Source: an uncultured Pelagibacteraceae bacterium
GTDB lineage: Bacteria; Pseudomonadota; Alphaproteobacteria; Pelagibacterales; Pelagibacteraceae
Direction: 5' to 3'
Assembly (NCBI GenBank): GCA_902539445.1
Contig: CACBIY010000007.1
Span: 1-53,085 of the forward strand
Length of the DNA: 53,085 nucleotides
Made by a program: the position numbers and the translations under genes. This document shows, piece after piece, positions 9,753-46,973 of this stretch. Each line of letters begins with the position of its first letter. Position 1 is the first letter of the stretch. Below the pieces are notes generated by a model that made no database searches, had not been told where the DNA came from, and saw only the letters and a list, made by a program, of their open reading frames with translations.

Positions 9753-10595
9753 ATGATTATTTGGGTAGCATCATATCCGAAGAGCGGAAATACATGGGTC
9801 AGGTCTATAATTTCGTCTCTAATCTATACAAAAGATGGAATATTTGATTTTCCTAGCATAAAAAAAATTGATCAATATCCACAAAGACGATTTTTAGAAT
9901 ATTTTACTCAAGATTATAATAATATTCATGAAATTAAAAAGCATTGGATTACATCTCAAGAAAGAATAAATTTAGACACTAAAATAAAATTTTTCAAAAC
10001 ACATCATTTAAACTGTAAAGTTGACAATTATCCTTTTACCAATAAAGAATGTACACGAGCTACGATTTACATTGTTAGAGATCCTAGAAATCTTATTGAC
10101 TCCATATCAAATCACTTCAGCAAATCCATCGAAGAATCCAAAAAGTTTCTTCTCACGTCAAAAATTCTTTCTCCAGGTAAAGAAATTGAGTTAAGAGGTG
10201 GAAACGTAATTACATATATTGGATCATGGAAAGAACATTATAGGTTTTGGACGAACGATAATGAAAATTTGTTAATAATTAAATACGAGGACTTAGTAAA
10301 AAATATACATCAAGAGATTGATAAGATTATTGCATTTCTTAAAAATTTCATCGCTTTCGAGGTGTCTGATACCAAAAAAGAAAATGTTATAAAATCAACC
10401 TCCTTCGAAGCATTAAAAAAAATTGAAGATAATGGAAATTTTACAGAGAACGTTTTCGTTAAAGGAAAGAGTGAAAAAGTAAGATTCTTTAACAAAGGAC
10501 CCAGCAATAATTGGCAAAATACACTACCAAAAAACATTCAAAAAGATTTAGAAACTGAGCTTAATAGTGAATTAAAAGAACTTGGCTACCTTTAA
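9753..10595 (+). CDS. Sulfotransferase family protein (copy 1)
   Basis: Predicted PAPS-dependent sulfotransferase. The 5'-phosphosulfate loop YPKSGNTW is at residues 8-15, the candidate catalytic His lies in KTHH (82-85), and the 3'-phosphate motif RDPRNLIDSISNH is at 109-121. Near the C-terminus a KGPSNNW segment matches the PAPS-binding KG-x-x-x-x-W loop. There is no signal peptide, so it is probably cytosolic; the acceptor is unknown. It stands alone between mnmE and rho and is transcribed against all its neighbours for about 10 kb. That suggests insertion into the origin region. A paralogue lies about 20 kb away and begins with nearly the same residues. Confidence 0.88.
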   Translation: MIIWVASYPKSGNTWVRSIISSLIYTKDGIFDFPSIKKIDQYPQRRFLEYFTQDYNNIHEIKKHWITSQERINLDTKIKFFKTHHLNCKVDNYPFTNKECTRATIYIVRDPRNLIDSISNHFSKSIEESKKFLLTSKILSPGKEIELRGGNVITYIGSWKEHYRFWTNDNENLLIIKYEDLVKNIHQEIDKIIAFLKNFIAFEVSDTKKENVIKSTSFEALKKIEDNGNFTENVFVKGKSEKVRFFNKGPSNNWQNTLPKNIQKDLETELNSELKELGYL

Positions 10596-30215: not shown

Positions 30216-31067
30216 ATGATAATTTGGCTCGCTTCTTATCCTAAAAATGGAAACACATGGTTAAGATCGTTGATAAGTGCTTATTATTATACAAAAGACG
30301 GTATTTTTCTTGGTGATAATCATTTAAGGAATATTCAACAGTTTCCTGTAAAAAAATATTTAGAAAGTTTTGATTATGATTTATCAATACCAGGAGATAC
30401 TTCGAGATTATGGGTCTTAGCGCAAGAAAAAATTAATGAAGACCGAAAGATAAAATTTTTCAAGACGCATAATGCTTTAGTGAAATTGGGAAATTATGAT
30501 TTTACAAATCGAGCTAATTCACTTGGTGGAATTTACATTGTAAGAGATCCTAGAAATGTTCTAGACTCCATGTCCAGACATTTTCAAATCGATCACGATA
30601 AAGCTTTAGAGGTGATGCAAGATAAAAAAAACTTTACTTATGATTTTAAGAAGAAAAAGGATTATAGTGATTATCAATTTATAAGTTCTTGGGAATTAAA
30701 TTATCAATCTTGGAAAAATAATAACTTATTACCAACAAAATTTTTAAAATATGAAGATTTATTGTCAGAAACTTTTTTTGTATTTAAAGAGATAATAGAA
30801 TTCATAAATAAACTAACAAATGATAAAAGTGGATTTAGTAGGGAAAAAGCTAAAAATGCTGTTAACACTACTTCTTTTGAAAACTTAAAAAAAATAGAAG
30901 AAACAAACGGGTTTAGTGAGTCCATTATCTCACGAGAAGAAAAAAAAAAGATACCTTTTTTCCATTTAGGTCCAAAGAATAATTGGCAAAAAAACTTTGA
31001 TAAAGAATTTGTTAAGAAATTAAATAATGTTTTTAAAAAGAATTTAATTGAATTAGATTATAAATAA
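30216..31067 (+). CDS. Sulfotransferase family protein (copy 2)
   Basis: Second PAPS-dependent sulfotransferase, clearly paralogous to the copy beside rho. Both begin MIIW-x-ASYPK-x-GNTW and share TKDGIF near residue 26. The phosphosulfate loop YPKNGNTW is at 8-15, KTHN with the likely catalytic His at 83-86, RDPRNVLDSMSRH at 110-122, and a late LGPKNNW loop. It is 283 aa with no signal peptide. It lies just upstream of tRNA-Gly and a methyltransferase. The acceptor is unknown; a surface glycan, lipid or secreted metabolite are possibilities. Confidence 0.88.
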   Translation: MIIWLASYPKNGNTWLRSLISAYYYTKDGIFLGDNHLRNIQQFPVKKYLESFDYDLSIPGDTSRLWVLAQEKINEDRKIKFFKTHNALVKLGNYDFTNRANSLGGIYIVRDPRNVLDSMSRHFQIDHDKALEVMQDKKNFTYDFKKKKDYSDYQFISSWELNYQSWKNNNLLPTKFLKYEDLLSETFFVFKEIIEFINKLTNDKSGFSREKAKNAVNTTSFENLKKIEETNGFSESIISREEKKKIPFFHLGPKNNWQKNFDKEFVKKLNNVFKKNLIELDYK

Positions 31068-41478: not shown

Positions 41479-41892
41479 TTAAAATTTACTCATTTTATTT
41501 AAAATTTTCCAGCTTTTAGAGTCAATAGGCATTACAGATAATCTACTTTGTTTAATCAAAGATAAATGGCTTAATTGCTTGTTTTTTTTAATTTTTTCCA
41601 AAGATACTGGATTATTAAGTCTTTTTAAAAATTTTACTGTAACTGCAACAAATCTCCCTGATTTGTCAGTTTTATCCATGTAATGTTCTTTTAAAACCTC
41701 TACAATTCCAACAATTTCTTTTCCAATATTTGAGTGATAAAAAAAACATTGATCACCCTTTTTCATGCTTTTTAGATTCTTAGCTGCTTGATAGTTTCTT
41801 ACACCATCCCAGGGTACCCCTTTTTCACCAGCCTTTTTTTGTTGATCAATCGACCAAACATCAGGCTCAGATTTTAATAGCCAATATTTCAT
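41479..41892 (-). CDS. EVE domain protein (DUF55 / THYN1-like)
   Basis: Protein of 137 aa that is entirely an EVE (PUA-like) domain. It starts [16 protein letters not shown], then [24 protein letters not shown] and [11 protein letters not shown] domains are thought to recognise modified bases in DNA or RNA, but this stand-alone type has no settled function. It begins directly at the OpgB-GDPD stop and ends four bases before acs, so the three genes are probably co-transcribed. Confidence 0.92.
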
Positions 41893-44679
41893 TTAATTAC
41901 ATAAATCTAATATATTGGGAGTTGATGAAAAAATCACGTCAGAATAAATACCTTCAACGTAATTATGTAAATCACAGAGAATTTCGGCTTCTTTCCCAGA
42001 TGTTTCCAAAACATATTTGTTAAATTTTTTATTAATATTATAAGCGTATGTTTTAAAACCAAGAGACTTCGCCTCTTTAAAAAATTCTGGATAATTGTAT
42101 ACAGTTTGTTGATCTACAGCAAAACCATAGGGAATATTTTTTTGACTCATAAGATATTTTAAATAATTTTTAGAATACTTATTTCTGTAAATCATACGTT
42201 GCGATATCAAAATTTTGGAAAAATTGTTCTTAATTGCTTCTTCAATTGATTTTTTTGTAAACAACTCAATGATTAAATTGTTTTGAACCTTCTTAAATGT
42301 TTTTTTTATTAACAAAGCATCATCAAGTTTATCAGTGACTAAAGTAGCATCAGGGTGTTTAATAAACCAATCTAAAATTTCAACTTCACTTAAAGGAGTA
42401 AATTTTTCGTCAATTTTATAATTTAGAAAATTTTTTAAATCGGGAGGGACAGCTCCGTCATATTTAGTTCTTTGTTTCCAAGATGTCCAGTCATGTGCAG
42501 CAACAATTTTGTTATCTGATGTTAAAAGTAAGTCTAATTCAAAATATCTAGCCCCTAAACTATAGTTTTTTTGCAATGACTCTAATGAATTTGTGTATAC
42601 ATGTTTATCAATCGAGCCTCCTGCATGAGCAATAAATGTATCTTTCTTAAGCAGAAATTCTTTATCTATAATTTCTCTATCTTTTGTAAATTTAAAGTAA
42701 ATTTTTTTGTAATTTAATTTTGTAGATAGATAAAATTTATTGATCACTGGGTATGCCCAAGGTATAAAGTTTGACATATTTTCTTTTGTATATTTCCTAA
42801 AATTTTCCCATGAAATTAAAAATGAACTAGGTTTTTCATTTAGATTTTTTATTTTTGATATAAACTCATCTTTTTTTATCTTTTCAAATAAATAAGATTC
42901 TTTATTAAAGCTTTTATCGTAAGGGTAAACTTTGATAGTTATCATATCTTTTTTTTCTTTCACATTAATAAGCATAAACTCACATTGATTTTTATTTGAA
43001 ATAATAGCATAATTAAATTTATTACATTCACCAATTGCTTTAAAATTAATTTTTTTATTTTTTTTTACAATCTCATCAAAAATTATCGCCTCTATGTTTT
43101 TTCTGATGACACCTTTTGCATCAGTTTCTACTTCTATTACTTTTCCTTGAATAGACAAAAGTGGCATAGACATCGTCAGCCCGGACGGAAAAATCACTGA
43201 ATTTTCATTCTCCAAAATTTTACCATCTAAAAGTACCAGCTTCTCATTAATATTAATTAAATCTTTCTCAAAAGTTTTAATTATTTTTGAAATATCTTGA
43301 TTATTATTAGATAAAGATTTCTTTATTCTTTCGTCGTTCTCAAAAAGACTTACACCTAAACCCATTTTGTTGTTCCCGCTTAAATAATCTAGAATTGTTG
43401 CTGGTATATCTAATGTGTTACCTTTAATATTTATTTCCTTTTTTTTTTGAACCTCATAAGGATCAATGATCAAAAATAAATTTTTTCTTTTTTTTTGATC
43501 CTTAAAGTATTTTCTTGAAATATTGGAGTTCATTAAAAGGTGATCTGAGTGAATTATGATTAAATTATTTTTTGACTTATCATTAAAAATTATTTGATTA
43601 ATCAAATTATTTAGGTACAGATCATTACAGTAAACAACCTTAAGATGGTTCATCGATATATGTTTACTTATTTTCTCACAATTTTTCGACAATAGGCCAT
43701 TTGGTGGATGATTATCTACAGTGCTTATCCAAACGGCATAAGGTTTGTCCTTAGTTTCAAAATACTTAATTTGATTTAATGCATACTCTAAAACTATATT
43801 GTCATGAATTCCCCAAGGACTTATTTGTAAATTTCTCTCGCTGTAAAAATCTTTAATCGAATCTAATCCTTTTACCTCTTTGACACTATGAGTATTATAA
43901 AAATTTCCGTTTCCTGCATATTTTTCTGATGTGCCTTGAATTGACATTAAATTATAATTTTTTTTGGCTAATAGGTCAGAAAGACAATTGTAATTAGAAT
44001 AAAAGGTAAGATCCACATATGGTAAACCACAATTACTGGCAACTAAACCTGCAATTGTCCAGTCAGTATAGCCTTTGACTTGATTTATATTTGTGAAATC
44101 AATTAAATCATTACGATCAAGAAGCCTTAAGTTTAAATGCTTAAGATTTTTATTTTTATAAAAAGTTCTTTCTAAACTTTCAGCAGCTATAATAACTAAA
44201 TCTCTATTTAAGAAATTTTTTGGAACTTCTTTTACGTTTTTAAAATATTCATTAAAATCATACTCACCAATGATATTGGAATTACCATATGTCATTAGAA
44301 AACTTTTTATTAATGACATTGATGCGGGATTAACAAATATAAAAATTAATAGAAATATTGTTTTATAAAAATAATTTTTAATTCTGAATTTTATGAATTT
44401 TTTATAAATTAATATCCCAATTGAAAAAAATAAAAAAAACAAAAACATTTGAAAAATAAATATAAATAAATAAGGTAAATAAGTTGATCCGATCAAATCA
44501 CTTTGTAAATGAATCCAAAACGATCTATTAAATCCTTCTCCTGTAATTATATTTATGGAAATATAAAATAGTGATAATAGAATTAATAAATATATTATTA
44601 GGTAATGAATTATTGTGCTTTTGGTTATTTTAAATTCATTTAAAAAATATCCAAAAATAAATGAAAATAAATAAATCAT
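41893..44679 (-). CDS. OpgB-type phosphoglycerol transferase fused to a glycerophosphodiesterase-like domain
   Basis: Protein of 928 aa with three parts. Residues 1-120 hold about four membrane helices. Residues 160-450 are a sulfatase-fold phosphoglycerol transferase: ESLERTF (167-173), TDWTIAGLVASNCGLP (205-220) with the likely Thr nucleophile, PWGIHDN, and SDH at 378-380, all close to E. coli OpgB/MdoB. Residues 480-600 resemble the OpgB C-terminal region. Residues 681-915 are GDPD-like: AHAGG (His685), NSLES, FELDLLLT (Glu714, Asp716) and AAHDW (His729, Asp730). OpgB moves phosphoglycerol from phosphatidylglycerol to periplasmic glucans; a GDPD cleaves glycerophosphodiesters. The extracytoplasmic site is inferred from topology. 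Confidence 0.85.
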   Translation of the reverse strand: MIYLFSFIFGYFLNEFKITKSTIIHYLIIYLLILLSLFYISINIITGEGFNRSFWIHLQSDLIGSTYLPYLFIFIFQMFLFFLFFSIGILIYKKFIKFRIKNYFYKTIFLLIFIFVNPASMSLIKSFLMTYGNSNIIGEYDFNEYFKNVKEVPKNFLNRDLVIIAAESLERTFYKNKNLKHLNLRLLDRNDLIDFTNINQVKGYTDWTIAGLVASNCGLPYVDLTFYSNYNCLSDLLAKKNYNLMSIQGTSEKYAGNGNFYNTHSVKEVKGLDSIKDFYSERNLQISPWGIHDNIVLEYALNQIKYFETKDKPYAVWISTVDNHPPNGLLSKNCEKISKHISMNHLKVVYCNDLYLNNLINQIIFNDKSKNNLIIIHSDHLLMNSNISRKYFKDQKKRKNLFLIIDPYEVQKKKEINIKGNTLDIPATILDYLSGNNKMGLGVSLFENDERIKKSLSNNNQDISKIIKTFEKDLININEKLVLLDGKILENENSVIFPSGLTMSMPLLSIQGKVIEVETDAKGVIRKNIEAIIFDEIVKKNKKINFKAIGECNKFNYAIISNKNQCEFMLINVKEKKDMITIKVYPYDKSFNKESYLFEKIKKDEFISKIKNLNEKPSSFLISWENFRKYTKENMSNFIPWAYPVINKFYLSTKLNYKKIYFKFTKDREIIDKEFLLKKDTFIAHAGGSIDKHVYTNSLESLQKNYSLGARYFELDLLLTSDNKIVAAHDWTSWKQRTKYDGAVPPDLKNFLNYKIDEKFTPLSEVEILDWFIKHPDATLVTDKLDDALLIKKTFKKVQNNLIIELFTKKSIEEAIKNNFSKILISQRMIYRNKYSKNYLKYLMSQKNIPYGFAVDQQTVYNYPEFFKEAKSLGFKTYAYNINKKFNKYVLETSGKEAEILCDLHNYVEGIYSDVIFSSTPNILDLCN

Positions 44680-44810
44680 AAATAAAAGTTAGTTAGTTGA
44701 TTTTTTATTATTAAAAAAAATAAGATTAATTTATATCAAAACCAATAAACTTATGTGTAAAAAGTTATTAATAATTAAAGTAATAATGAAAAAATCTGCT
44801 AAAATTAATT

Positions 44811-45890
44811 ATGAGAGTTTTTTTTGATTATTCAATATTTACACTACAAAGTTTTGGAGGGGTATCAAAATATACTGTAAATCTAGTAGAAAACTTCTCA
44901 GACCAAATTGATCCACTTATAATCTCATTATTTTATAAAAATTATTATCTGAAAAACAGTAGGTTTGCAGATAAAATGTTTTTTTTTAAAAAAGCTGGAC
45001 CTCTAATAAAATATTTAAATAAGACTAATGAAATATATTTTAATTATAGGTTAAGAACAAAAAACCCAGATATAATACATTTAAGTTATTTCAATCAAAA
45101 AAATTTTTATAAATCAAAAGCAAAAACAGTAATTACAGAGCACGATTTGATAAAAGAGAAATTTTATCCTAAAAAATATAAAGATGAAATTGAATACAAA
45201 AAAAGATTATTTGAAAAAATTGATCAAATTATTTGTGTTTCTGAAAATACAAAAAAAGATCTTCTCGAGGAATATAATATAGATGCTTCTAAAATTTCAG
45301 TTGTTTATCATGGTGTAAATAAGAATAAAAATGTTAGAGAAAGATCATTAAATATTAGACCTTTCATACTTTTTGTAGGGTCAAGACAAAGATATAAAAA
45401 CTTTGAAAACGCAATAAAATCTTATGCGAGATCAAGCAAACTTAAATTAGATTTTGACTTTGTTTGTTTTGGAGGAGGAAGTTTTTTAAAAATAGAGGAA
45501 GAATTATTTAAAAATCTTTCGATAAATAGAGAGAGAATTCATTATTATGAAGGAGATGATCAAGATTTAAATTATTTTTACCAAAATGCTCGAATATTTA
45601 TTTTTCCATCATTATATGAGGGATTTGGCATGACGCTTTTGGAAGCAATGAATATGCAATGTCCAATTATTTGTAGTGATACAAGTTGTTTTCCTGAAAT
45701 AGTAAATGACTCTGCGATTTTATTTAATCCAACAGATATAGAGATGCTAACATCTAAAATAGAAAAAATGATTTATGATGATCAGTTATTATTAGATTTA
45801 AAAAAAAAAGGAAATACCAACTTAAATAATTTTAGTTGGAATAAATGCGCTAATGAAACAGAAAACTTGTATAAAAAATTATTCAATTAG
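44811..45890 (+). CDS. GT4-family glycosyltransferase
   Basis: GT-B fold glycosyltransferase of 359 aa. The N-terminal FGGVSKYTVNLVENF is the acceptor-domain loop, ENTKKDLLEEYNI and SVVYHGVN mark the domain link, and FPSLYEGFGMTLLEAM contains the retaining GT4 E-x7-E motif (Glu270, Glu278). The donor and acceptor are unknown. It is divergent from the OpgB-GDPD gene across a 131-bp AT-rich spacer in which I could not single out promoters. The pairing suggests a shared role in envelope glycan or glycolipid assembly. Confidence 0.88.
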   Translation: MRVFFDYSIFTLQSFGGVSKYTVNLVENFSDQIDPLIISLFYKNYYLKNSRFADKMFFFKKAGPLIKYLNKTNEIYFNYRLRTKNPDIIHLSYFNQKNFYKSKAKTVITEHDLIKEKFYPKKYKDEIEYKKRLFEKIDQIICVSENTKKDLLEEYNIDASKISVVYHGVNKNKNVRERSLNIRPFILFVGSRQRYKNFENAIKSYARSSKLKLDFDFVCFGGGSFLKIEEELFKNLSINRERIHYYEGDDQDLNYFYQNARIFIFPSLYEGFGMTLLEAMNMQCPIICSDTSCFPEIVNDSAILFNPTDIEMLTSKIEKMIYDDQLLLDLKKKGNTNLNNFSWNKCANETENLYKKLFN

Positions 45891-45899
45891 ATTACGTTC

Positions 45900-46973
45900 T
45901 TATAATTTTAATCCAGATCCTTTTAAAAAAGCAGCATCTGAGTCTAAAGGCCACCTAGGTTTTGCTGGAAAATCTAAATTGTTAAATTTTTTTAATTTAA
46001 ATTTTTCTAATCCAACCATTGCAATCATAGCTGCGTTGTCCCCACAAAATTCAATTTTTGGAAATATAGTTTGATAGTTTTCTTTATAACATAGATTAAT
46101 TAACATAGATCTAATATTTTTATTTGCAGCTACACCTCCTGCCACAACAAATACTTTATTTTTTAATTTGTTTTGTTTTTCAAATTCTCTAAATGCAATC
46201 TTAGTTTTTTTGTGCAATATCTTTACAACTGTATTTTGAAATGATGCTGCAAGGTCAAATCTTTCTTGGTCAGTTTTAATTTTTTTAGTTATTTTTAATA
46301 TAGCTGTTTTCAGTCCTGCAAAAGATAAGTTACACCCACCCCTAGAATAAATCGGTTTTGGCAAATGAAATTTTTCAGGGTTTCCTTTTTCTGCCAGAAC
46401 CTCAATCTTTGGGCCACCTGGAAATTCAACTCCTAAAAGCTTTGCAGTTTTATCAAATGCTTCTCCTAAAGCATCATCGATAGTTGTGCCTAATCTTTTA
46501 TATTTTTCAAGACCTTGGACATTTAAAAATTGTGTGTGTCCGCCAGAAATCAATAAAAGTAAATATGGATAAGTTAATTCTGAATTTAGTTTTGGACTCA
46601 ATGCATGACCTTCTAAGTGATTTACTGCGATAAATGGTTTCTTTAAGGTAGATGCTAATGCCTTTCCAAAACTTAAACCGACAGATAAACATACTATCAA
46701 ACCTGGACCAGCAGTTGAAGCTACAGCATCAATTTCGTGAATTTTTTTCCCACTATCTTTAATTGCTTTTTGAACAATCAAATCGATTTTTTCCATGTGA
46801 GCCCTAGCAGCTAATTCTGGAACAACTCCTCCAAATTCTTTATGAATATCTATCTGACTTGAAATAACGTTGGATAGAACCAATGGAATTCCTCGTTCAT
46901 CTTCAGTAATTACAGACGCAGCTGTCTCATCACAACTTGACTCAATTCCAAGAATTAGGGTTTTTTTTCTCAT
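45900..46973 (-). CDS. tsaD: tRNA N6-threonylcarbamoyladenosine transferase TsaD
   Basis: Transfers the threonylcarbamoyl group to A37 of ANN-decoding tRNAs, together with TsaB, TsaC and TsaE. The ASKHA ATP-binding fold starts with GIESSCDETA, and the metal-binding HLEGH is at 119-123. ISGGHTQFL and GCNLSFAGLKTA follow. The length of 357 aa is typical. It is divergent from hemC, an arrangement widely conserved in alphaproteobacteria. Confidence 0.98.
   Translation of the reverse strand: MRKKTLILGIESSCDETAASVITEDERGIPLVLSNVISSQIDIHKEFGGVVPELAARAHMEKIDLIVQKAIKDSGKKIHEIDAVASTAGPGLIVCLSVGLSFGKALASTLKKPFIAVNHLEGHALSPKLNSELTYPYLLLLISGGHTQFLNVQGLEKYKRLGTTIDDALGEAFDKTAKLLGVEFPGGPKIEVLAEKGNPEKFHLPKPIYSRGGCNLSFAGLKTAILKITKKIKTDQERFDLAASFQNTVVKILHKKTKIAFREFEKQNKLKNKVFVVAGGVAANKNIRSMLINLCYKENYQTIFPKIEFCGDNAAMIAMVGLEKFKLKKFNNLDFPAKPRWPLDSDAAFLKGSGLKL

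What the first reader, a model, noticed from the sequence alone, without database searches (positions are those of the whole stretch)
41893..44679. Fusion of an OpgB-type phosphoglycerol transferase with a glycerophosphodiesterase-like domain
One 928-residue protein joins a membrane-anchored OpgB-like enzyme (ESLERTF, TDWTIAGLVASNCGLP, SDH motifs) to a C-terminal GDPD-like barrel with its His, Glu-x-Asp and His-Asp motifs intact (His685, Glu714, Asp716, His729, Asp730). OpgB makes glycerophosphodiester links on periplasmic glucans; a GDPD breaks such links. A single polypeptide that both adds and removes phosphoglycerol, or recycles glycerol-phosphate from its product, is an unusual design. 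In a phosphate-poor ocean it could tie envelope decoration to phosphorus salvage. The C-terminal domain replaces the tail of classical OpgB. This is my leading candidate for an undescribed system, together with the divergent GT4 gene.
Basis: partly seen in the sequence, partly recalled or inferred. Interest (0 to 1): 0.78.

Follow-up and report, generated by a model that had tools for sequence, protein, structure and literature searches.

The report
Two-headed phosphoglycerol transferase and diesterase
An ocean bacterium carries one membrane protein that looks able both to attach phosphoglycerol to a surface sugar chain and to cut that kind of bond, and relatives in several distant bacterial groups keep the same two enzymes fused or side by side.

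Summary
Window 41893-44679, minus strand, encodes a 928-aa protein with an OpgB/LtaS-type (sulfatase-fold) transferase and a GDPD barrel. Profile searches and fold comparison support both halves. Both are about equally constrained (dN/dS 0.12 and 0.13 against the nearest relative).

Two corrections. The transferase scores far below the OpgB equivalog cut-off, and MdoG/OpgG was found in 0 of 99 congeneric genomes, so periplasmic glucan is an unlikely acceptor. Phosphorus salvage has little support. The diesterase is a distinct 'HAGG' subfamily lacking the usual Arg after the first His.

The stronger finding is genomic. Of 25 distinct HAGG-GDPD loci, 12 are fused to such a transferase, 8 lie beside one on the same strand, 2 are cut by contig ends and 3 have neither. 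They span SAR11, Gammaproteobacteria, a desulfuromonad and Bacteroidota. At least 11 of the 25 lie near glycan genes. None of 8 HRG-type loci had one. One close fused relative keeps the transferase site but has lost both GDPD histidines.

Best reading: a surface-glycan tailoring enzyme that adds phosphoglycerol from phosphatidylglycerol and then cuts or edits that diester. Activity and acceptor are inferred. I found no published description.

The parts
41893..44679 (-). Whole fusion gene, 928 aa: membrane anchor, sulfatase-fold phosphoglycerol-transferase-like domain, middle region, GDPD barrel
44296..44679 (-). Residues 1-128: hydrophobic anchor, three transmembrane stretches by hydropathy and a fourth helix (2-15) in the model; Lys/Arg counts of the loops put the catalytic domains outside the inner membrane
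   Evidence: hydropathy and loop charges; helices in the model, (low confidence there)
43345..44214 (-). Residues 156-445: sulfatase/alkaline-phosphatase-fold domain, OpgB/LtaS type; Glu167, Thr208 (presumed nucleophile), Asp293, His324, Asp379, His380
   Evidence: Pfam PF00884; VIA-align LtaS Z 21.3; in 21 of 21 aligned rows Glu167, Asp293, His324, Asp379 and His380 are identical and position 208 is Thr or Ser
42658..43344 (-). Residues 446-674: middle region; the OpgB model still matches to residue 519, the rest is unassigned
   Evidence: weaker constraint, dN/dS 0.21
41896..42657 (-). Residues 675-928: HAGG-type GDPD barrel; His685, Glu714, Asp716, His729, Asp783, Lys784, Glu805
   Evidence: Pfam PF03009; pLDDT 75-96 per block over 681-880, lower after that; VIA-align GDPD Z 21.0
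44811..45890 (+). Divergently transcribed GT4-type glycosyltransferase, the other gene of the same islet
   Evidence: Pfam Glycos_transf_1 E 1.8e-30
41893..45899 (.). Variable islet between the EVE-domain gene (41479-41892, -) and tsaD (45900-46973, -); relatives have 3 nt (G695), 117 nt (G696) or other genes (G703, G704) here
   Evidence: EVE by Pfam, TsaD by Pfam

Best explanation
It is a membrane-anchored envelope-glycan tailoring enzyme with two periplasmic active sites. Step 1 (inferred from family chemistry): the sulfatase-fold half takes the sn-glycerol-1-phosphate head group of phosphatidylglycerol onto Thr208 and passes it to a hydroxyl of a surface glycan (not the OpgGH glucan), leaving diacylglycerol. 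Step 2 (inferred): the HAGG-type GDPD half, with His685/His729 and a metal held by Glu714/Asp716 and probably Asp783, cleaves that glycerophosphodiester through a cyclic phosphate, so that the decoration can be trimmed, edited or reset. Shown here: the two domains, their intact sites, their linkage across phyla, the glycan-gene neighbourhoods and the selection on both domains. Not shown: activity, acceptor, and which of the two ester bonds is cut.
For: Both domains by profile and fold. The sulfatase-fold site is conserved in 21 of 21 rows. Window vs G202 dN/dS: sulfatase 0.119, GDPD 0.126, middle 0.212, anchor 0.287. Linkage: of 25 distinct HAGG-GDPD loci, 12 fused, 8 adjacent on the same strand, 2 cut, 3 without; HRG-type loci 0 of 8. 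8 of 9 stand-alone GDPDs examined have an N-terminal hydrophobic stretch, two of them lipoprotein-like, so they probably sit on the same side as the transferase site. Glycan genes by Pfam near 11 of the 25 loci; the neighbours of the other 14 were not searched for glycan genes. No MdoG in 99 of 99 genus genomes. Distances of the two domains correlate, r 0.84 over 19 loci. PG-derived phosphoglycerol is the sn-1 enantiomer, which GlpQ does not cut (PMC7086022 passages); the HAGG family lacks the phosphate-binding Arg after the first His, which fits a special substrate.
Against: No activity data. G798, 59% identical and fully open, has His685Gln, His729Gln, Asp783His and Glu805Arg, so its GDPD half should not work by the usual mechanism and may be idle or a binding module. 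A writer and eraser in one chain would be a futile cycle unless regulated, and no regulatory domain was seen. Three HAGG loci have no same-strand transferase neighbour; one of these, G548, ends 2.2 kb upstream of the gene and has phosphonate-uptake-like genes further downstream. The distance correlation partly reflects shared ancestry of the hosts.
Confidence: 0.5

Rival explanations
1. Phosphate-leaving variant: the GDPD half releases glycerol, not the glycan, so that the pair installs a phosphomonoester on the glycan, a phosphorylation outside the cell membrane that needs no ATP.
For: GDPD enzymes work through a cyclic phosphate made by a hydroxyl next to the phosphate; S. aureus LpgD turns lysophosphatidylglycerol into lysophosphatidic acid, so the head-group glycerol is what leaves (PMC10404611 passages). 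The HAGG family lacks the phosphate-binding Arg and has Asp783-Lys784 where I recall Glu-x-Lys in canonical enzymes, so its substrate may bind differently.
Against: GlpQ attacks with the glycerol 2-OH (passages of PMC7086022), which here would return the bare glycan. I ran no search for phosphorylated glycans in these strains.
Confidence: 0.13
2. Phosphorus salvage: the GDPD half digests periplasmic glycerophosphodiesters to feed the cell with phosphate or glycerol phosphate.
For: It is the only Pfam-GDPD protein found in the 92% complete genome. The G169 fusion is convergent with a Dak1 (dihydroxyacetone kinase) gene and an ABC-permease cluster. The lone GDPD of G548 lies 4.6-5.4 kb from phosphonate-binding-protein and ABC-ATPase genes.
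Against: Salvage does not explain why this GDPD subfamily is tied to a phosphoglycerol transferase in 20 of 23 loci that could be judged. G849, close to the G169 fusion, shows no such glycerol genes in the stretch held; the contig of I19 begins inside the gene.
Confidence: 0.12
3. The GDPD half is mainly a recognition or positioning module that binds the glycan or its phosphoglycerol, and its catalysis is secondary.
For: G798 keeps the fold at 60% identity with dN/dS about 0.20 although both histidines are gone.
Against: His685 and His729 are kept in 23 of 24 aligned rows, all but G798; Glu714, Asp716 and Asp730 in 24 of 24.
Confidence: 0.1
4. Poly-glycerol-phosphate synthase with trimming: the LtaS-like half builds a chain of phosphoglycerol units and the GDPD half sets its length.
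For: LtaS and LtaP are among the top fold matches of the first half. The LtaS equivalog NF053595 also matches the split transferases of Rheinheimera (E 1.7e-4) and G659 (E 3.2e-10), though more weakly than the OpgB models.
Against: By sequence the window half matches OpgB (NF003000, 212 bits), and NF053595 was not listed for it at E up to 1. OpgB adds single units (recalled).
Confidence: 0.07

Closest known systems
OpgB (MdoB), phosphoglycerol transferase I/II of E. coli
   Same: Membrane anchor plus periplasmic sulfatase-fold transferase; NCBIfam model matched over residues 15-519, E 1.5e-62
   Different: Far below the equivalog cut-off (212 of 574 bits); the last third of OpgB is not matched and a GDPD barrel stands at the C-terminus; no MdoG partner in 99 genus genomes
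LtaS / LtaP lipoteichoic acid synthases (also GacH-type glycerol-phosphate transferases of streptococci, recalled)
   Same: Same fold; LtaS 2w5q Z 21.3, rmsd 3.6 over 284 residues; head group of PG as donor by analogy
   Different: No GDPD domain and Gram-positive (recalled); LtaS makes a polymer
GlpQ / UgpQ glycerophosphodiester phosphodiesterases
   Same: GDPD TIM barrel, two His and metal-binding acids; 2pz0 Z 21.0, rmsd 2.9 over 224 residues
   Different: HAGG, not HRG, at the first motif; Asp-Lys where Glu-x-Lys is recalled on strand 3; fused to or next to a transferase in most loci; GlpQ is strict for sn-glycerol-3-phosphate (PMC7086022 passages)
LpgD, S. aureus lysophosphatidylglycerol phospholipase D
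   Same: Membrane-anchored GDPD acting on a PG-derived substrate through a cyclic phosphate (PMC10404611 passages); 8ghh Z 17.7
   Different: Stand-alone enzyme with canonical residues; substrate is a lysolipid

Membership tests
OpgB equivalog (NCBIfam NF003000 / NF009027) | Score above the curated cut-off (574 / 572 bits) | tested here: not met
   211.7 and 192.5 bits
OpgB equivalog (NCBIfam NF003000 / NF009027) | Whole-length match including the C-terminal third | tested here: not met
   Match ends at 527 of 763
OpgB equivalog (NCBIfam NF003000 / NF009027) | Genome makes the glucan acceptor (MdoG/OpgG) | tested here: not met
   0 of 99 genus genomes, the window's own among them (92% complete); E. 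coli control positive. Only MdoG was sought, not OpgH
Sulfatase-fold head-group transferases (OpgB/LtaS/GacH type) | Membrane anchor followed by PF00884 domain with metal-site Glu, Thr nucleophile and Asp-His | tested here: met
   residue roles assigned by recall of LtaS
Sulfatase-fold head-group transferases (OpgB/LtaS/GacH type) | Transfers phosphoglycerol from phosphatidylglycerol | not testable with these tools
   Needs an assay
GDPD (PF03009) | Pfam score above gathering cut-off | tested here: met
   41 against 23.6 bits
GDPD (PF03009) | Two catalytic His and the Glu-x-Asp metal motif | tested here: met
   His685, His729, Glu714, Asp716; the set is complete in 23 of 24 rows
Canonical GlpQ/UgpQ-type GDPD | Arg directly after the first His (HRG) | tested here: not met
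   Ala in 24 of 24 rows; the 8 comparison loci do have HRG; role of the Arg from passages of PMC7086022
Canonical GlpQ/UgpQ-type GDPD | Cleaves sn-glycerol-3-phosphodiesters | not testable with these tools
   Needs an assay

The most novel reading that the evidence does not exclude
A two-step machine that phosphorylates surface glycans outside the inner membrane without ATP: the first half installs phosphoglycerol from the membrane lipid, the second strips the glycerol and leaves a phosphate. Strains such as G798, whose second half is disarmed, would keep the phosphoglycerol, so that one gene family would set the charge and identity of the cell surface in three states: bare, phosphoglycerol, phosphate.
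Probability: 0.12. Interest if true: 0.85.

Novelty: new variant of a known kind. Interest (0 to 1): 0.6.

Why it matters
Both reactions are known chemistry, but an enzyme pair that adds and probably cuts the same phosphoglycerol bond, fused or adjacent in 20 of 23 loci that could be judged across several phyla, points to an undescribed step in surface-glycan tailoring. It gives a testable function to a GDPD subfamily that stands apart from GlpQ. The natural copy with a disarmed GDPD is a ready-made comparison. In SAR11 the window's copy sits in a variable islet; genes for surfaces exposed to phages and grazers would be expected in such places (inference).

Tried and rejected
OPG pathway: rejected as the acceptor route, MdoG in 0 of 99 genus genomes; OpgH was not sought.

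Phage or plasmid origin: no relative in viral contigs, phages or PLSDB plasmids; one GDPD query was used in each.

Wide presence in SAR11: of the 40 'matching' genomes, 28 have only weak hits within about residues 381-447; one of these, L013, was inspected and overlaps a protein I recognise as glutamate synthase small subunit, so I dropped all 28. Five more (L008-L012) are HRG-type GDPDs, and G007 has a lone OpgB-like protein. HAGG-GDPD remained in 6 of 297 genomes and 10 of 399; the two samples overlap.

Repeated origin of the fusion: the trees force at least 3 changes of the label fused/split for the sulfatase half and 2 for the GDPD half, but the Maribacter row counted as split is probably a fusion broken by frameshifts, and several branches are long, so more than one fusion event is suggested, not shown.

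Structure: the window model is poor as a whole (pLDDT 53, pTM 0.38), with 10 rows; blocks of its sulfatase part score 32-76 over residues 161-400. A shorter fusion (L044) modelled well (pLDDT 84.7), but the rows shown of its fold list were filled by the sulfatase half, so its GDPD half was not tested there.

G785 neighbour (467 aa, divergent): too weak to call a transferase (tblastn E 1.4e-4 over 92 residues; hhalign probability 1.1; no Pfam or NCBIfam hit). G1406: its neighbour is sulfatase-fold but convergent, so it was counted as without. G193: the GDPD frame holds an in-frame stop and runs off the contig; counted as adjacent, its GDPD left out of the alignments.

dS in the comparisons with G798 is near saturation and failed for one domain, so those ratios are rough.

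Full report
Observation. The ORF at 41893-44679 reads on the minus strand as 928 aa. Pfam finds Sulfatase at 162-433 (E 6.6e-13) and GDPD at 696-876 (E 3.2e-10). NCBIfam finds the OpgB model over 15-519 (E 1.5e-62), but at 212 bits against a cut-off of 574, the match ending at model position 527 of 763. Residues 470-678 searched alone have no PDB match at E up to 1 and no Pfam match at E up to 0.01. A ColabFold model is weak as a whole (mean pLDDT 53.2, pTM 0.38), but most of the GDPD part is good (75-96 per block of ten over residues 681-880; 44-49 over 881-900). Compared with solved structures, residues 139-445 match LtaS (2w5q, Z 21.3) and 675-926 match GDPD (2pz0, Z 21.0). A shorter gammaproteobacterial fusion (L044, 760 aa) modelled well (pLDDT 84.7, pTM 0.61), and its first half matches LtaP with Z 27.3.

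Both halves are kept by selection. Between the window and G202, dN/dS is 0.119 for the sulfatase domain and 0.126 for the GDPD domain, against 0.212 for the middle and 0.287 for the anchor. In 21 aligned sulfatase-fold rows Glu167, Asp293, His324, Asp379 and His380 do not vary and position 208 is Thr or Ser. The roles of these residues are taken from recall of LtaS.

A distinct GDPD subfamily. The first motif is HAGG where GlpQ-type enzymes have HRG; position 686 is Ala in 24 of 24 rows, and G193, left out of that alignment, also reads HAGG. In B. subtilis GlpQ the Arg after the first His binds the phosphate, and GlpQ is strict for sn-glycerol-3-phosphoryl ends, whereas PG carries sn-glycerol-1-phosphoryl ends (passages of PMC7086022). 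Strand 3 ends in Asp783-Lys784 where I recall Glu-x-Lys in canonical enzymes. A GDPD fitted to the sn-1 product of a PG-using transferase is a reasonable guess from this. It was not tested.

Linkage. A scan of GTDB genomes with a GDPD-only alignment gave 17 loci, 14 HAGG-type and 3 HRG-type. In the 14, the GDPD is fused to a sulfatase-fold transferase in 9 (L036-L044) and next to one on the same strand in 5 (L045-L049; in L045 the GDPD gene comes first); in the 3 HRG loci there is none. Fused, 12: window, L036-L044, G798, G956. Adjacent on the same strand, 8: L045-L049, G026, G821, G659. Cut at a contig end before the question could be answered, 2: G744, G737. Neither, 3: G548 (contig ends 2.2 kb upstream), G785, G1406 (with a convergent sulfatase-fold neighbour). 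Five further HRG-type loci from the sister family, all one orthologous gene and held with only about 1 to 1.5 kb on either side, have no such neighbour. So 20 of 23 HAGG loci that could be judged, against 0 of 8 HRG loci. Named hosts are Pelagibacteraceae records, Flavobacteriaceae, Aquimarina, Maribacter, a Prevotellaceae MAG, a Desulfuromonadales MAG, a gammaproteobacterial symbiont and Rheinheimera tangshanensis. The system is rare per genome: 10 of 399 congeneric genomes, 3 of 398 across the phylum with the own genome among them, 1 of 250 and 2 of 247 in the orders around G659 and G548, which include those centres. The reverse does not hold: an OpgB-like gene without a GDPD in the stretch held exists in G007.

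History. In trees, the sulfatase halves fall into two groups (100/100), an OpgB-like one with the window and a second one, and both contain fused members. The window GDPD is 32-39% identical to the GDPDs of the second group and 25-30% to those of the five split pairs of the OpgB-like group, while its sulfatase half is only 17-26% identical to the second group and 36% to the OpgB-like gene of G659. This suggests repeated fusion or domain exchange, but it is not proven. Pairwise distances of the two domains correlate (r 0.84, permutation p 0.0001, 19 loci), partly through host ancestry.

Neighbourhood. The gene lies in an islet between an EVE-domain gene and tsaD, together with a divergent GT4 gene. 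Relatives carry 3 nt (G695) or 117 nt (G696) there, or other genes (G703, G704). By Pfam, glycosyltransferase, UDP-GlcNAc 2-epimerase, sugar nucleotidyltransferase or DegT aminotransferase genes lie near 11 of the 25 loci: window, L038, L043, L044, L046, L047, G659, G026, G798, G821, G1406. I chose these neighbours by eye; the other 14 loci were not searched for glycan genes, and some of them, such as L037, L041 and L049, show none that I recognise. The GC of the gene (0.248) is within the range of the window's genes.

Acceptor. MdoG was found in 0 of 99 congeneric genomes while the E. coli control rang. The acceptor is therefore probably a surface glycan. No other Pfam-GDPD or Pfam-Sulfatase protein was found in the own genome, which is 92% complete.

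Evidence against a simple story. The fusion of G798 (934 aa, 59% identical over its length) has the full transferase site but His685Gln, His729Gln, Asp783His and Glu805Arg. Its GDPD domain is still 60% identical to the window's, with dN/dS about 0.20 (dS near saturation). Either GDPD activity was shed in that lineage while the domain kept a binding role, or it is on its way out. For a writer-eraser reading it is a natural eraser-dead copy; for the view that GDPD catalysis is the point of the fusion it is a warning. For the salvage reading speak a Dak1 gene and an ABC permease near the G169 fusion and a phosphonate-binding protein 5.4 kb from the lone GDPD of G548.

Mechanism. By family chemistry, OpgB moves phosphoglycerol from PG to glucans and its soluble form moves it between glucans (passages of PMC3818809). 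GDPD enzymes act through a cyclic phosphate (passages of PMC10404611). Together, the likeliest working is installation of phosphoglycerol on a surface glycan and cleavage of that diester by the second half. Which ester bond is cut decides between erasing (glycerol phosphate released) and leaving a phosphate (glycerol released). Nothing here decides it.

Novelty. Three paper searches on this combination returned nothing relevant: 0 papers; 1 paper, on WhyD of pneumococcus; 1 paper, on Erysipelothrix; titles and abstract starts were seen in the listings only. The library holds open-licence PMC papers, so subscription papers could describe it. I rate it a new variant of a known kind.

Noticed in passing
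L068:5332-8133 (G798): Close fused relative with an intact transferase site and a disarmed GDPD site (both catalytic His changed to Gln).
   Followed up: yes
L046:3740-6696 (Maribacter halichondriae Hal144): Sulfatase and GDPD ORFs lie in different frames and the GDPD end diverges abruptly from its fused kin L038; looks like a fusion gene broken by frameshifts or sequence errors.
   Followed up: partly
L033:1-495 minus (G193): GDPD frame of the split pair holds an in-frame stop and runs off the contig.
   Followed up: partly
window 41893-45899; L080, L084, L099, L100: The site between tsaD and the EVE gene is a variable islet in SAR11 relatives with different cargo per genome.
   Followed up: partly
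L031:1-9226 (G169): The fusion is convergent with a Dak1 gene and an ABC-permease cluster; other members of that cluster look like a DhaL and sugar- or glycerol-type transporter parts (by eye). Not seen in the stretch held of G849.
   Followed up: partly
L056:1497-3352 (G548): Phosphonate-binding protein (PF12974, E 1.7e-65) and ABC ATPase about 4.6-5.4 kb from a lone HAGG GDPD gene.
   Followed up: partly
window 9753-10595 and 30216-31067: Two similar sulfotransferase-domain genes (PF00685, E 4.9e-25 and 6.5e-20) starting MIIW(V/L)ASYPK(S/N)GNTW.
   Followed up: partly
PMC12421898 (one passage): A SAR11 glycerophosphodiester phosphodiesterase gene is reported among genes rare or absent at lower latitudes; whether it is this HAGG type is unknown.
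   Followed up: no
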